Both the position numbers and the translations under genes were made by a program. The notes beneath the pieces are model-generated. The model was not told the origin of the DNA. It did no database searches and was given only the letters and a program-made list of their open reading frames with translations. Below are positions 54,266 to 58,761 of a stretch of DNA of 64,000 nucleotides, piece after piece. Every line of letters starts with the position of its first letter. Within the stretch, counting starts at the first letter, position 1. Source of the DNA: Chitinophagaceae bacterium. Its GTDB lineage: Bacteria > Bacteroidota > Bacteroidia > Chitinophagales > Chitinophagaceae. The stretch is from positions 310,001 to 374,000 of the forward strand of contig JAEUVD010000002.1 in NCBI GenBank assembly GCA_016787065.1, given 5' to 3'.

Positions 54266-54338
54266 GGTGCGGTAGCTCAGTTGGTAGAGCAAAGGACTGA
54301 AAATCCTTGTGTCGGGGGTTCAATTCCCTCCCACACCA
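54266..54338 (+). tRNA. tRNA-Phe (GAA)
   Basis: The 73-base sequence folds as a cloverleaf: D-stem GCTC/GAGC, anticodon stem AAGGA/TCCTT around the loop CTGAAAA with anticodon GAA, and a T-arm with TTCAATT. The 3' CCA is not fully encoded (A73 followed by CCC). The acceptor stem GGTGCGG/CCACACC has a C5-A68 mismatch, which is unusual. It stands at the border of the accessory segment. Confidence 0.92.
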
Positions 54339-54447
54339 CCCACAAACAAAGGCTTTCAGAGAAATACTCGGGAAGCCTTTTACTTTTGCTACAACAATAC
54401 TACAACATAAGGAGTATATGTGTATTGTTTATACTATATAATATAGG

Positions 54448-54972
54448 TTATAGAATTTCTAAATTTATTAGCCTAAACGTCATAGCGGAAATACTAACAT
54501 TAAAACTCTTAGCAAGTATTTGAAGATTCTTGTCATCACTAAGGTCTAAGTGACGGTTTTCAATTTCCTTTATTATAAACTTTTTTGGCATTAGAAGTGC
54601 TGCTGCAAATGCATTAGCTTCCTTTTCATTTTGCATTTCACCAGTAGAAGAATCTTCATTTCTAAATGCTACTTTGAATTGTTTATCAACAAATAAAGTA
54701 CTTCTTTCCGTTGGGTTATAATGTAACTCATAATGTCCAAGTTCGTGAGCGATAGTAAATCGCTGCCTAACCTTCGAATCATTAAAATTGTAGCCTATAA
54801 ACCCTTCTCCATCCTTTATTACGAGCACACCAGAAACGGTTTCCCCCAAGTCGTATGGCTTTACTTCCAACCCCCTGTTCTTGGCAATTTCCCTAACCGG
54901 TATAGGAATTCTTTCAACAGCATAATCTTCCAATAACTTTGATGTTATTGTCTCAATCCTTTTGTTAATCAT
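54448..54972 (-). CDS. ImmA/IrrE family metallo-endopeptidase
   Basis: A 174-residue protein. The zinc motif is HELGH (residues 76-80) in RFTIAHELGHYELHY, and the third ligand is in NEKEANAFAAALLMPK (Glu118 region). Such peptidases cleave or inactivate a partner XRE repressor, often in response to DNA damage or phage-related signals. It overlaps the XRE gene by four bases (ATGA), which makes the pair an ImmA-ImmR type module. The gene lies on the opposite strand from the ubiquitin-like operon, in the first part of the accessory segment. Confidence 0.9.
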   Translation of the reverse strand: MINKRIETITSKLLEDYAVERIPIPVREIAKNRGLEVKPYDLGETVSGVLVIKDGEGFIGYNFNDSKVRQRFTIAHELGHYELHYNPTERSTLFVDKQFKVAFRNEDSSTGEMQNEKEANAFAAALLMPKKFIIKEIENRHLDLSDDKNLQILAKSFNVSISAMTFRLINLEIL

Positions 54973-55319
54973 GAGGTTTGTTTTTTGACGTGAATTTGCT
55001 CAATAAAACCAAGTATTTTTTCTTTACTACTTTTGTCATTAGTTTTTGAAGAAATCATTTCCTTCCATTTTGAATTTGGAGCCTCAGCAATTTCAATTGT
55101 CGGAATTAAAGATTGAAACTGAATGTTTAATATTTTTGATATTTCCCAAAGCAAATGAACGGAAGGCCGCTGCCTGCCCATTTCAATATTAACCACTGAA
55201 GACCTAGATAAATTTAGTAACGAAGCAAAGTCTTCTTGCTTGTAATTCGCCTTTCTTCTCTCGGACTTAATTATTGTACCAATAGATAAATAGAAATTTA
55301 ATACATCTGATTCGCTCAT
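54969..55319 (-). CDS. XRE-family regulator, partner of ImmA/IrrE peptidase
   Basis: A 116-residue protein. The helix-turn-helix occupies about residues 14-70: IIKSERRKANYKQEDFASLL, NLSRSSVVNIEMGRQRPSVH, LLWEISKILNI. The C-terminal 45 residues are a flexible charged region that could hold the ImmA cleavage site. It is the first gene of the minus-strand pair. A palindrome (55364-55378) overlaps its own -33 promoter element, so autorepression is likely, and the same site could affect the divergent ubiquitin-like operon. Confidence 0.85.
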   Translation of the reverse strand: MSESDVLNFYLSIGTIIKSERRKANYKQEDFASLLNLSRSSVVNIEMGRQRPSVHLLWEISKILNIQFQSLIPTIEIAEAPNSKWKEMISSKTNDKSSKEKILGFIEQIHVKKQTS

Positions 55320-55338
55320 AGAATATTAAAATTTACAG

Positions 55339-55369
55339 CGAAGGTAATCTTCAATGTTGAATATTGCAA
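55339..55369 (-). promoter_or_regulatory. promoter of the XRE-ImmA pair
   Basis: On the minus strand TTG (55369-55367) and TACCTTCG (55346-55339) are spaced by 20 bases. The second element matches TAnnTTTG in seven of eight positions. The ATG is 19 bases downstream. Confidence 0.5.
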
Positions 55370-55378
55370 ACGTTGCAA
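55364..55378. promoter_or_regulatory. palindromic operator candidate TTGCAA-N3-TTGCAA
   Basis: TTGCAA is self-complementary and occurs at 55364-55369 and 55373-55378, giving a 15-base inverted repeat. It covers the -33 element of the XRE-ImmA promoter and lies about 78 bases before the ubiquitin-like gene. Confidence 0.5.
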
Positions 55379-55430
55379 ATACTATACATAATAAATTAGT
55401 TTGTTTAACTCTACATGTCAAAAATTCAAT

Positions 55431-55438
55431 TATCTTTG
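55431..55438 (+). promoter_or_regulatory. TAnnTTTG promoter element (TATCTTTG) of the ubiquitin-like operon
   Basis: TATCTTTG fits the -7 consensus exactly, 17 bases before the ATG at 55456. The nearest upstream TTG (55401) is 27 bases away, longer than usual, so the promoter may be weak or need an activator. Confidence 0.5.
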
Positions 55439-55455
55439 TCAAAATTTTTTAGAAA

Positions 55456-55770
55456 ATGAGTAATAAACAAAATGTATTAGGAGGCAACCCAACTCTCAAT
55501 TCCTATAACCTCAATTTTATTATTGAAGGAGATTTATTTACGGGTCAATATGATGCAAATAAAACATTAAGAGAGGTGCTTGAACATGCCCTTAATAAAA
55601 GCCAACATACTGGACGACCAGTTGATGACTGGCAGGTAAAGGTTGCGGGAATCACCTTAGATGTGAACCAAAAATTAAGTAATCTAGGATTATCTGATGA
55701 AGTCAAATTAGTGGTTAGTTTAAAAACCGGTGCTGGTGGAAATAGTAATTGGTATGAATTTGGAATATGA
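55456..55770 (+). CDS. ubiquitin-like protein with C-terminal Gly-Gly and tail (BilA-like)
   Basis: A 104-residue protein. After a flexible N-terminus the order strand (NLNFIIEGDLFTGQY), helix (TLREVLEHALNKSQ), strand (DDWQVKVAG), turn and strand (EVKLVVSLK) is that of a beta-grasp fold. It ends in TGAGG (Gly94-Gly95) and nine more residues, NSNWYEFGI. Removal of that tail would expose a Gly-Gly terminus as in ubiquitin. The neighbouring JAB peptidase is the natural candidate for this. It has one beta-grasp domain; the characterised Bil protein has two. The last 17 bases overlap the next gene. Confidence 0.78.
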   Translation: MSNKQNVLGGNPTLNSYNLNFIIEGDLFTGQYDANKTLREVLEHALNKSQHTGRPVDDWQVKVAGITLDVNQKLSNLGLSDEVKLVVSLKTGAGGNSNWYEFGI

Positions 55771-56359
55771 TGTTTCTAGCCAATATGTAGAGCCCGCTGT
55801 CTCTAAAGAAAAATTTGATCGAGAGTTGAATTTATTTCTATCGAACAAAGGTGAGTATATTAAACGGGGCATAATTTTGGTCGATGCAATTTTTCCATCA
55901 ATAGATTTCATTTTTTTAGCTCAAAAACTGACTCCCATGGCAGTAGTTTTTGCAGTTAGAGTAAATTTCAATAATTATGATGTTGAACCGCCTTCCGTGA
56001 CTTTCATTGACCCGTTATCAAAACTTCCGATTCCAGCCATGAAATGTTTAACGCATTTTCAAAAGAGAATCGGTCTTGACCCTAATGGACAAATTCAAAC
56101 ACAAGCATTATTACAATTTGAAACTCCGTTTTCAAAGCCTTTTCTGTGCTTTGCAGGAATTCGTGAATACCATAATCACCCTTTTCATACGGGCGATTCC
56201 TGGTTGTTGTACAGAAAAAGGGGTGAAGGGACTTTAAGTTTTATCATTGAGGCACTTTACAATTATGGAATTGCTCCTATAGAAAGTTATAACCTTCAAG
56301 TGCAAGTCCAATCGCCAATAGTCCAATTAGGGCAAAACCCAATAAACATTTCGGAATGA
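55754..56359 (+). CDS. E2-like protein with Cys-Glu-His-His motif (BilB-like)
   Basis: From ATG 55754 the protein has 201 residues. Residues 62-95, MAVVFAVRVNFNNYDVEPPS then VTFIDPLSKLPIP, resemble the strand-flap region of the E2 (UBC) fold. Next comes PFLCFAGIREYHNHPFHTGD with Cys132, Glu138, His140, His142 and His145. This C-E-H-H pattern is that of a family described as a predicted metal-binding domain (Metal_CEHH, as I remember it) in bacterial ubiquitin-like operons. Cys132 is the best candidate for the thioester-forming cysteine. The start lies inside the coding sequence of the Ubl tail, and the stop overlaps the JAB gene by four bases. Confidence 0.7.
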   Translation: MNLEYDVSSQYVEPAVSKEKFDRELNLFLSNKGEYIKRGIILVDAIFPSIDFIFLAQKLTPMAVVFAVRVNFNNYDVEPPSVTFIDPLSKLPIPAMKCLTHFQKRIGLDPNGQIQTQALLQFETPFSKPFLCFAGIREYHNHPFHTGDSWLLYRKRGEGTLSFIIEALYNYGIAPIESYNLQVQVQSPIVQLGQNPINISE

Positions 56360-56847
56360 TATTGCTTAATAAAATCGAACGGATTTTGCTTCCGTTTTCT
56401 CAAATTGAAATTGTTTATAAGCACTTACGAAATGTTGGAAGTCAAGGCTATGAGGGTGTTGCTCTTTGGATTGGAGTATTAATATCCGAAACAGAATTTG
56501 AAATTACAGAGACGATAATACCACAGCAAAAATTATCAAATAGTGAAGAAGGGCTATTATACCTTGTGGAAGCATATGCCCTTGAAAAACTTAATTGGTA
56601 TCTATACGAAAATAAACTTACCCTGCTTTCTCAAATACATAGTCATCCTAATAGAGCATATCACTCTGAAACGGATGATAAATACCCAATTGTAACAAAG
56701 CTTGGAGGATTTTCAATTGTAGTGCCAAATTTTGCCAAAGCTCCCTTTCAACTTAAGGATTGGGCTATATTTAGACTTCAAGGGAATCAAGACTGGCGTG
56801 AATTAGATAAGATCGAATCTTCCGATATTTTTAATATTATATACTAA
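56356..56847 (+). CDS. JAMM/JAB-family isopeptidase (BilC-like)
   Basis: A 163-residue Mov34/MPN-type metalloprotease. The JAMM residues are Glu33 (GYEGVALWIG), His95 and His97 (SQIHSHPNR), Ser104 and Asp107 (YHSETDD). All five are in place, so it should be active. It lacks an added domain. In bacterial ubiquitin-like systems such proteins process the precursor and remove it from conjugates. The gene overlaps its neighbours on both sides by four and one bases, which implies a balanced translation of the operon. Confidence 0.88.
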   Translation: MILLNKIERILLPFSQIEIVYKHLRNVGSQGYEGVALWIGVLISETEFEITETIIPQQKLSNSEEGLLYLVEAYALEKLNWYLYENKLTLLSQIHSHPNRAYHSETDDKYPIVTKLGGFSIVVPNFAKAPFQLKDWAIFRLQGNQDWRELDKIESSDIFNIIY

Positions 56848-58403
56848 TGGCATTAGCAAATTTCTTCGATAAAAGCGTACTAAACGCATCTCAAGTTTTA
56901 AATGAATTTGAGATAACGGAATTTGAGAGTATTTTGAATTCGCAATATGTTGGAATAGCCTACGATCATAGCATAAATAATTCGAAAGAGGGGGTTAAAA
57001 CTTTAGACCTGCTGATTCGGATATTGGCTAGACTATATCCCAATTTGCAAATTATTAATATTTGCAATTCAAATACTGCGGTAGAAACTAGGTTAAAAAA
57101 TATTGCACTAGAAATAAATCCTAAAATAAATTTAAGCACAGAAATTTCTCCAACAGTTTGTATTATTGTCGGCAATAGTGAACATCAACCAGCAAACTGC
57201 AAATGTTTTTATATCGGCTCTAAAGGATGGATTTTTAAATTATCCACTACTGCCCCTGTCGAATCCGGACATTCTAATAACCCTTTGGGAGCTGGCGCGG
57301 CCGCTTGCTTAGGAGCAGCCAACGTGTTTAGATATATATTCAAGGATAAATTAAATAATGCAGACAACGACAGCGAGCTTTGCTTTTCCTTATTCGATTT
57401 TAATACTACAGAAATAAATATCGAAAATGACTATGGCGATTCAATAGAAAATTTTCAATTCGGAGAGGCCACACTAGTTGGGATTGGCGCCATTGGTAAT
57501 GCGGTTTTATGGACTTTAAGAAACATTGATTCTGCAACAGGGAGAATAACTGTTATTGATAACGAGAAAATATCGCTGACTAACCTTCAACGTTATGTTC
57601 TAACTTCACAAAGTAATATTAGCCCGAACGAGATTTATAAAGTTGACCTAGCAAAAGAACAATTAAAGGCTACAAAAATAAAGGTGATGCCAATCAAACT
57701 AAATTGGCAAGAATTTTTTAGCCAAGCAAAGAATAAAAAGAGTGAGAAAATATTAGTAGCTGTGGATTCTGCTAAAGCAAGAATTGAAATACAAAGTGGG
57801 CTTCCAAAAAAAATATTTAACTCCTGGACACAACTTTCAGAGTTAGGAACTTCCTCTCACTTAAATTTTTTAGATGAAAAAGCCTGTCTAATGTGTCTTT
57901 ATATACCAGATCGTAAAGTAAAAAGTAAATCGGAACTAATTTCTGAGGCGTTACAAATTCCACAATATGAACCTACCGTAAGAAAGTATCTTGCATTGAA
58001 TCTACCTTTGGATAAATCACTTCTTAATATTATCTCGCTAAGTATAAATGCATCTCATGAAAAGTTGGAGGCTTATATAGGGAAGCCTCTCGAAATATTT
58101 TATTCAGAAGTCGTATGTGGTGGTGTTTTAATGCAACTTGCCGGAAAGACAATTAAACAAAAACAAATAGAGGTACCGACAGCATTTGAATCTGCATTAG
58201 CCGGAATATTATTAGTATCAGAATTTATAAAGGATGCATTAGGTAGTACTAATATTCAAGAATCAAACAAGGTTAGACTTAATCTTCTCCGGCAATTTAA
58301 TCCGAAAACAATACTTGATCTTGAATTGAAAAGACCGCATTTTAAATGTATTTGTCAAGATGATGACTTTACCAATTCGTATAAGAAAAAATGGAATTTA
58401 TAG
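56847..58403 (+). CDS. ThiF/E1-like ubiquitin-activating enzyme (BilD-like)
   Basis: A 518-residue protein. Residues 1-200 form a domain of unknown kind with the conserved-looking NPLGAGAAACLGAANVFRYI. The adenylating domain follows: GIGAIGN (212-218), VIDNEKISLTNLQRY with Asp238, Asn246 and Arg249, Lys265, and AVDSAKAR with Asp307. Cys347/Cys350 and Cys501/Cys503 may bind zinc. Cys424 (VVCGGVLM) is a candidate catalytic cysteine. The ATP-binding residues agree with the MoeB/E1 pattern. It is the last gene of the operon; no terminator hairpin is obvious behind it. Confidence 0.87.
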   Translation: MALANFFDKSVLNASQVLNEFEITEFESILNSQYVGIAYDHSINNSKEGVKTLDLLIRILARLYPNLQIINICNSNTAVETRLKNIALEINPKINLSTEISPTVCIIVGNSEHQPANCKCFYIGSKGWIFKLSTTAPVESGHSNNPLGAGAAACLGAANVFRYIFKDKLNNADNDSELCFSLFDFNTTEINIENDYGDSIENFQFGEATLVGIGAIGNAVLWTLRNIDSATGRITVIDNEKISLTNLQRYVLTSQSNISPNEIYKVDLAKEQLKATKIKVMPIKLNWQEFFSQAKNKKSEKILVAVDSAKARIEIQSGLPKKIFNSWTQLSELGTSSHLNFLDEKACLMCLYIPDRKVKSKSELISEALQIPQYEPTVRKYLALNLPLDKSLLNIISLSINASHEKLEAYIGKPLEIFYSEVVCGGVLMQLAGKTIKQKQIEVPTAFESALAGILLVSEFIKDALGSTNIQESNKVRLNLLRQFNPKTILDLELKRPHFKCICQDDDFTNSYKKKWNL

Positions 58404-58491: not shown

Positions 58492-58761
58492 ATGGAAATT
58501 ATTTGTATAGAAGATACTACGTTTTATTCCCTTATTGAAAAGGTAATAGACCGCATTAAAGAAAAACATGATATAAAAACGAACAAGATGATTTCCGGTG
58601 AGGAAGCTATGAGATTACTCCGTATAACAAGTAAAACCACACTTCAAAAACTCAGAGACGAGGGTAAAATTCTTTTCACACAACCAGAAAAGAAAATTAT
58701 TCTATATGATACAGATTCAATAAATGAATATCTCAAAAAAAACATTAAAGCCCCATTCTAA
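58492..58761 (+). CDS. HTH_17/excisionase-like DNA-binding protein
   Basis: An 89-residue protein. After a 30-residue helix (TFYSLIEKVIDRIKEKHDIK) comes a winged helix typical of MerR/excisionase types: MISGEEAMRLLRITSKTTLQ, KLRDEGKILFTQPEKK and ILYDTDSINEYLKKN. Such proteins are common in Bacteroidota accessory DNA and often accompany integrative elements, though no integrase lies in the window. It is 89 bases behind the E1 gene and three bases before a decayed small gene. Confidence 0.75.
   Translation: MEIICIEDTTFYSLIEKVIDRIKEKHDIKTNKMISGEEAMRLLRITSKTTLQKLRDEGKILFTQPEKKIILYDTDSINEYLKKNIKAPF

What the first reader, a model, noticed from the sequence alone, without database searches (positions are those of the whole stretch)
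55456..58403. Four-gene ubiquitin-like conjugation operon (Ubl, E2-like, JAMM peptidase, E1) in an accessory segment
The sequence shows four genes on one strand with overlaps of 17, 4 and 1 bases: a beta-grasp protein with Gly-Gly, an E2-like protein with Cys-Glu-His-His, an intact JAMM protease and a ThiF/E1 enzyme with complete ATP site. Established knowledge: operons with Ubl, E2, DUB and E1 in this order (Bil, ISG15-like; related Bub systems) conjugate a ubiquitin-like protein to phage structural proteins and protect bacteria. Inference: this is such a defence system, but it differs from the characterised Bil in having a single beta-grasp domain, a free tail and an E2 of the CEHH type. It sits beside an ImmA/XRE pair and next to a tRNA, the usual setting of a defence island.
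Basis: partly seen in the sequence, partly recalled or inferred. Interest (0 to 1): 0.92.

Follow-up and report, generated by a model that had tools for sequence, protein, structure and literature searches.

The report
Ordinary Bil ubiquitin-like operon, rare lineage
This is a bacterial version of the ubiquitin tagging pathway, an ordinary and apparently intact copy of the known 'Bil' phage-defence operon in a Chitinophagaceae-family (Bacteroidota) bacterium where it is rare, next to a two-gene switch of the type that turns such defences on after DNA damage.

Summary
In detail: four intact genes on the + strand (55456-58403), overlapping by 17, 4 and 1 bases, encode a ubiquitin-like protein (Ubl), an E2, a JAMM peptidase and an E1. 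The interpretation as a Bil-type conjugation system is right. The claimed differences from Bil are not. All four proteins match the solved Bil complex 8TYX/8TYZ/8TZ0 (E1 over its full length, E=2e-106). The solved E2 carries the same CEHH motif, the solved Ubl also has one beta-grasp domain, and removal of a C-terminal tail by the peptidase is part of the known pathway. The type was catalogued in 2006 as operon class 6c (prototype pNGR234a). The divergent neighbours are CapH/CapP-like (XRE repressor plus ImmA protease), a class of DNA-damage switch used by such operons. The operon is accessory: absent from the other sampled genomes of its genus, and its E2 family is found in about 2% of its family. 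Verdict: a new member of a known kind. The most unusual thing lies in relatives: in three Hymenobacteraceae genomes, in two separate lineages, the Ubl and E2 are one protein, so the Ubl should be inert until the peptidase cuts it free.

The parts
55456..55770 (+). bilA: ubiquitin-like modifier, one beta-grasp domain (DUF2604), 104 aa. Predicted mature end is Gly95 (codon 55738-55740), followed by a 9-residue tail NSNWYEFGI
   Evidence: Pfam DUF2604 1.2e-18; 8TYX_A BilA 1.2e-7, aligned ...SLKTGAGG/...SLKAGVAG; AF2 model with beta-beta-alpha-beta-beta order, pLDDT 77.5; best Foldseek hit 8TYX_A, TM 0.70/0.88
55754..56359 (+). bilB: CEHH-type E2, 201 aa; predicted catalytic Cys132 with E138, H140, H145 (alternative GTG start at 55730)
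   Evidence: Metal_CEHH 3e-47; BilB 8TYZ_C 4.4e-40; residues invariant in 20 sequences; AF2 pLDDT 90.2, best Foldseek hit 8TZ0_C, TMt 0.92
56356..56847 (+). bilC: JAMM/JAB deconjugating and processing peptidase, 163 aa; E33, H95-x-H97, S104-x2-D107
   Evidence: BilC 8TYX_B 4.4e-40; PADLOC BilC 8e-17; E33, H95, H97, S104, D107 invariant in 18 loci
56847..58403 (+). bilD: E1, 518 aa; inactive N-terminal adenylation domain (the stretch Pfam calls Prok-E2_C), active ThiF domain, predicted catalytic Cys424, paired cysteines C347/C350/C501/C503
   Evidence: BilD 8TYZ_A 1.8e-106 over residues 1-516; PADLOC BilD 2.8e-19; Pfam Prok-E2_C and ThiF; residue table
54969..55319 (-). CapH-like XRE repressor, 116 aa, divergent from bilA
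   Evidence: HTH_3 3.6e-12; PADLOC capH 8e-7, with a better hit to HTH_VI 7e-14
54448..54972 (-). CapP-like ImmA/IrrE metallopeptidase, 174 aa, with HELGH; overlaps the XRE gene by 4 bases
   Evidence: Peptidase_M78 5.8e-22; PADLOC capP 4.4e-36
55320..55455 (.). Shared intergenic control region: TATCTTTG (55431-55438), a Bacteroidota -7-type element, 17 bases before the bilA start; TTGCAAACGTTGCAA (55364-55378), a candidate operator
   Evidence: TAnnTTTG also precedes several relatives' operons; the TTGCAA motif is the only copy in the window but about 0.7 near-matches are expected by chance: weak
54266..54340 (+). tRNA-Phe; with recQ before it, the conserved left border of the accessory segment
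   Evidence: recQ-tRNA-Phe kept in the genus; sequence similarity stops at or just after the tRNA

Best explanation
A complete Bil (bacterial ISG15-like) ubiquitin-like conjugation operon of the class-6c type, under a CapH/CapP-like switch. Proposed working: the XRE repressor keeps the operon low; on DNA damage or infection the ImmA protease cleaves it and the operon is transcribed. BilC cuts the 9-residue tail off BilA to expose Gly95. BilD adenylates the glycine and takes BilA onto Cys424, BilB receives it on Cys132 and transfers it to lysines of target proteins, probably virion proteins, so that progeny phage are defective. BilC can reverse the conjugates. Shown here: gene order, homology, folds of the Ubl and E2, and intact catalytic residues. 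Inferred from characterised homologues: the chemistry, induction, targets and phage protection.
For: All four proteins hit the chains of one solved system (8TYX/8TYZ/8TZ0): BilA 1e-7, BilB 4e-40, BilC 4e-40, BilD 2e-106 over the whole length. The models match the same entries best. E2 C132/E138/H140/H145 correspond to the CEHH motif reported for BilB; E1 C424 aligns with the published catalytic Cys417. Same order and single-domain Ubl on rhizobial plasmids. The E1 lies among other Bacteroidota Bil E1s. An adjacent XRE + ImmA pair, separate or fused, recurs at many Bacteroidota Bil loci. In a same-family relative (G578, L102) the Bil operon lies beside a DRT8 defence reverse transcriptase (1e-156) and a WYL regulator. 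CapH+CapP and CapW are found at many Bub operons, and CapK+CapS at Bub, CBASS and some Bil operons, as DNA-damage switches (PMC13373217).
Against: No phage assay exists for this operon, nor for any Bacteroidota member known to me. The primary Bil papers were not in the library, so function rests on a review (PMC11354881) and on memory. BilA is only weakly similar to the solved Ubl (31% identity in the structural match). The CapH assignment is weaker than the CapP one. No promoter or operator was demonstrated.
Confidence: 0.87

Rival explanations
1. A sulfur-carrier system (ThiS/MoaD plus ThiF/MoeB plus JAB, as in thiamin, molybdopterin, siderophore or cysteine pathways): BilD adenylates BilA to load sulfur, not to conjugate it.
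For: The adenylation domain is a ThiF relative, and JAB peptidases occur in sulfur-carrier operons (Iyer 2006 classes 4a-4e).
Against: The E1 scores 360 bits against BilD but only 27 against MccB and 19 against MoeB. It has the N-terminal inactive domain and a conserved C424. There is a dedicated E2 with the BilB fold. I saw no rhodanese, ThiG, MoaE or cysteine synthase gene in the locus.
Confidence: 0.02
2. A Bub-type (diverged, oxyester-based) ubiquitination-like operon rather than Bil.
For: CapH+CapP is often found at Bub operons (219 of 544 had CapW or CapH+CapP; PMC13373217).
Against: All four proteins match BilA-D as best or only significant solved relatives, and the E1 and E2 active-site cysteines are present. 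That Bub uses serine/oxyester chemistry is from memory; the paper was not held.
Confidence: 0.02
3. A Bil operon that works as a general stress-response conjugation system (for example after DNA damage) rather than mainly against phages.
For: The CapH/CapP-like switch responds to DNA damage in its known relatives; PMC13373217 notes that the line between stress and immune pathways is blurred. No phage data for this clade.
Against: Patchy, accessory distribution (E2 family in 9 of 396 family genomes; E1 absent from 13 genus relatives) and a relative sitting beside DRT8 fit defence better.
Confidence: 0.07
4. A decayed or silent remnant.
For: AT-rich accessory DNA (31-36% GC against about 40% on the recQ side).
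Against: Four intact overlapping ORFs with every catalytic residue kept, at only about 40-46% identity (enzymes) to relatives.
Confidence: 0.02

Closest known systems
Structurally characterised BilABCD (8TYX, 8TYY, 8TYZ, 8TZ0)
   Same: Four proteins, CEHH E2, JAMM peptidase, two-part E1 with catalytic Cys, single beta-grasp Ubl; same gene order in its close rhizobial relatives
   Different: Sequence about 31-40% identical in the Ubl and E2 structural matches; longer Ubl tail (9 residues against 0-1 in rhizobia); XRE/ImmA pair upstream, not seen at the rhizobial loci
Iyer et al. 2006 operon class 6c, prototype plasmid pNGR234a (L015)
   Same: Same E1 with Prok-E2_C domain, JAB and 'predicted metal-binding' CEHH protein
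   Different: Described only from alphaproteobacteria; row 6c lists no Ub-like protein and the CEHH protein was not recognised as the E2
Bil with multi-domain BilA (e.g. Methylobacterium brachiatum, PDB 8U38)
   Same: Conjugable C-terminal DUF2604 domain and CEHH E2
   Different: BilA there has extra N-terminal Multi_ubiq domains; the window protein has one domain
CapH+CapP regulators of CBASS, Bub and related operons
   Same: Overlapping XRE and ImmA-protease genes divergent from the operon; PADLOC capP 4e-36
   Different: The CapH match is weak; cleavage and induction untested

Membership tests
Bil (BilABCD) | Contiguous Ubl, E2, JAMM peptidase and E1 genes on one strand in that order | tested here: met
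   same order in rhizobial loci
Bil (BilABCD) | E1 with inactive N-terminal and active C-terminal adenylation domains and a catalytic Cys | tested here: met
   By sequence: full-length match to 8TYZ_A, 1.8e-106; C424 aligns with Cys417; ATP-site residues kept
Bil (BilABCD) | E2 of UBC-like BilB fold with Cys-Glu-His-His | tested here: met
   C132, E138, H140, H145 invariant; model best match 8TZ0_C
Bil (BilABCD) | JAMM peptidase with metal site | tested here: met
   E33, H95, H97, S104, D107 present; BilC 4.4e-40
Bil (BilABCD) | Beta-grasp Ubl ending in glycine, with or without a removable tail | tested here: met
   Model and Foldseek...GAGG|NSNWYEFGI
Bil (BilABCD) | ATP-dependent conjugation of BilA to target lysines | not testable with these tools
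   Needs biochemistry
Bil (BilABCD) | Protection against phage by modifying virion proteins | not testable with these tools
   Needs plaque assays and proteomics
Bub (oxyester-type) | Serine instead of cysteine as E1/E2 nucleophile (recalled, source not held) | tested here: not met
   Cysteines C424 and C132 conserved
Sulfur-carrier ThiS/MoaD systems | E1 of ThiF/MoeB type with sulfur-transfer partners and no E2 | tested here: not met
   Dedicated E2 present; E1 far closer to BilD than to MoeB
CapH+CapP switch | XRE repressor gene next to an ImmA-type protease (HExxH) gene, divergent from a defence operon | tested here: met
   HELGH in the translation
CapH+CapP switch | Repressor cleaved by the protease upon DNA damage | not testable with these tools
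   Needs a reporter assay

The most novel reading that the evidence does not exclude
In Bacteroidota, Bil is built as a gated cascade: the Ubl is made as an inactive precursor, with a short tail here and fused to the whole E2 in Adhaeribacter aquaticus, A. soli and Hymenobacter lucidus, so that BilC is an obligatory activating protease that also sets Ubl and E2 in equal amounts, in the manner of eukaryotic ubiquitin-ribosomal protein fusions. I found no report of this fusion in the papers searched, but the primary Bil papers were not held.
Probability: 0.4. Interest if true: 0.5.

Novelty: new member of a known kind. Interest (0 to 1): 0.33.

Why it matters
It extends a characterised bacterial ubiquitination-like defence into the Chitinophagaceae with its parts intact and with a likely DNA-damage switch beside it, which makes induction of Bil testable. 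The relatives show the Ubl and E2 fused in two lineages, an easy system for testing whether the peptidase gates the pathway. It does not change what is known about how Bil works.

Tried and rejected
Sulfur-carrier reading: rejected on E1 and E2 similarity. Bub reading: rejected on active-site cysteines and best relatives. Mobile element with tRNA-derived att sites: no copy of the tRNA-Phe 3' end in the next 61 kb to the contig end, no long flanking direct repeats; a systematic integrase search was not made. TTGCAA-N3-TTGCAA as operator: not clearly above chance. A full consensus -33/-7 promoter: only the -7-like element was found. Bil on phage records: no E1 match in the phage collection. First genome-contig scan with the single E1: nothing confirmed; repeating it with the alignment gave 61 loci. 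A search of the family of L066 for more fusions was not possible with that handle. The primary Bil and Bub papers were not held.

Full report
Observation. The E2 could also start at GTG 55730, but ATG 55754 fits the relatives better. Pfam names the products DUF2604, Metal_CEHH, Prok-JAB (below the cut-off) and Prok-E2_C + ThiF.

Identity. Each protein was compared with all solved structures. The first hits BilA of 8TYX/8TYZ (1e-7), the second BilB (4e-40), the third BilC (4e-40) and the fourth BilD over its whole length (2e-106). AlphaFold2 models from alignments of relatives have a beta-grasp fold for the Ubl (pLDDT 77.5) and a confident fold for the E2 (pLDDT 90.2). Their best solved matches are again 8TYX_A and 8TZ0_C. 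Beyond BilB, the E2 model resembles eukaryotic E2s only weakly (Foldseek E above 0.1). The E1 and the peptidase were not modelled; they rest on sequence.

Active sites. E2 C132, E138, H140 and H145 are invariant in 20 relatives and correspond to the C138/E144/H146/H151 motif reported for BilB, with C138 catalytic (PMC11354881). E1 C424 aligns with the reported catalytic Cys417, and the ATP-site residues and four paired cysteines are kept. The peptidase keeps E33, H95, H97, S104 and D107. The crystal form of BilC was an E33A mutant, and the window protein has Glu at that position.

The three 'differences' from Bil are not differences from the solved Bil. Its Ubl is also one beta-grasp domain (98-residue chain), as are the rhizobial Ubls (97-101 aa); Methylobacterium BilA has two further Multi_ubiq stretches. 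CEHH is the Bil E2. Tail removal by BilC is described for BilA. What is different is modest: the tail is nine residues here, against none or one in rhizobia; Bacteroidota relatives have tails of up to about ten residues, or none.

History. Iyer et al. 2006 listed this operon type as class 6c, with the NGR234 plasmid as prototype. They called one product a predicted metal-binding protein and read the N-terminal part of the E1 as an E2 domain (PMC1779556). In the solved structures the CEHH protein is the E2 (8TYZ_C), and the review describes the N-terminal part of the E1 as the inactive adenylation domain.

Distribution. One copy in the genome. The family PF14455 is in 1 of 395 phylum genomes, 4 of 398 order genomes and 9 of 396 family genomes; the counts include the window genome and, in the last two, distant members. 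None of 13 genus relatives has an equivalent E1. Flavisolibacter (L072) appears to be the same record as same-family genome G573 (L080/L103), and L069 the same as G911 (L117), which places the window in the Chitinophagaceae (inference from matching sequences). A scan with an E1 alignment gave 61 loci, mostly rhizobia, with Methylobacterium, Sphingomonadales, Rubellimicrobium, an Acidobacteria MAG and six Bacteroidota. In the E1 tree the window lies among Bacteroidota; the closest E1 is 44% identical (L039).

Setting. recQ followed by tRNA-Phe is conserved in the genus and similarity ends at or shortly after the tRNA. No repeat of the tRNA end was found downstream. The segment is poorer in GC (31-36%) than the recQ side (about 40%). 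So it is accessory, but how it entered is not shown. Among the neighbours checked I found no second defence system in the window. A Fic gene about 8 kb downstream of the operon, just beyond the window, matches the PADLOC SoFic model (4e-47).

Switch. The divergent pair at 54448-55319 is an XRE repressor and an ImmA/M78 protease with HELGH. Among Bacteroidota Bil loci, separate XRE + M78 genes also occur at L039, L114, L115 and L116, fused ones at L066 and L067, WYL regulators at L069/L117 and L102, and a different pair at L072 and L077. No matching CapH/CapP-like pair was found next to the operon at the rhizobial loci. CapH+CapP, CapW and CapK+CapS are known switches of such operons in response to DNA damage (PMC13373217). 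In L102 the Bil operon is next to a DRT8 reverse transcriptase, the best independent sign of a defence role in this clade.

A side finding. In L066 (4485-5462), L067 (4296-5462) and L077 (4576-5493) the Ubl and E2 form one ORF: DUF2604, Gly-Gly, a linker of about 14-20 residues, then Metal_CEHH. L066/L067 and L077 are on separate branches, and the nearest relatives of L077 (L069, L072) are unfused, so fusion probably arose twice. All three keep an intact BilC active site. Since an E1 needs a free C-terminal glycine, the peptidase should be required to start the pathway. These loci come from records whose titles name strains, but no reads were checked.

Verdict. A real, complete and apparently functional Bil operon with a probable damage-responsive switch: a new member of a known kind, of moderate interest.

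Noticed in passing
L066:4485-5462, L067:4296-5462, L077:4576-5493: Ubl (DUF2604) and CEHH E2 are one open reading frame in Adhaeribacter aquaticus, Hymenobacter lucidus and Adhaeribacter soli, with the E2 directly after the Ubl Gly-Gly; two separate branches of the E1 tree.
   Followed up: partly
L104:6066-8836 (- strand) and L105:5200-7902: A second, divergent conjugation operon type in the same family: coiled-coil plus Ubl-like protein ending GGGGYE, a distant CEHH E2, JAB and a 455-aa E1, also with an XRE/ImmA pair upstream. It may be a separate Bil-like subtype.
   Followed up: partly
L102:1994-9638: Bil operon with a WYL regulator next to a DRT8 defence reverse transcriptase (PADLOC 1e-156).
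   Followed up: partly
L016:6265-7623: TIR-domain and caspase-family genes directly downstream of the Bil operon on a Rhizobium plasmid (record annotation).
   Followed up: no
L072:3110-4457 and L077:3097-4435: An unidentified divergent two-gene pair (about 240 and 212 aa, the latter with a weak HTH_36 hit in L077) in the place of the XRE/ImmA regulators.
   Followed up: no
window 58492-58761: Small HTH_17 (excisionase-like) gene just downstream of the E1, followed by short broken-looking frames to about 59200.
   Followed up: no
window 59372 to beyond the window end (frame open to 64636 in contig): Large DUF7948/SBBP-repeat protein gene, probably secreted.
   Followed up: no
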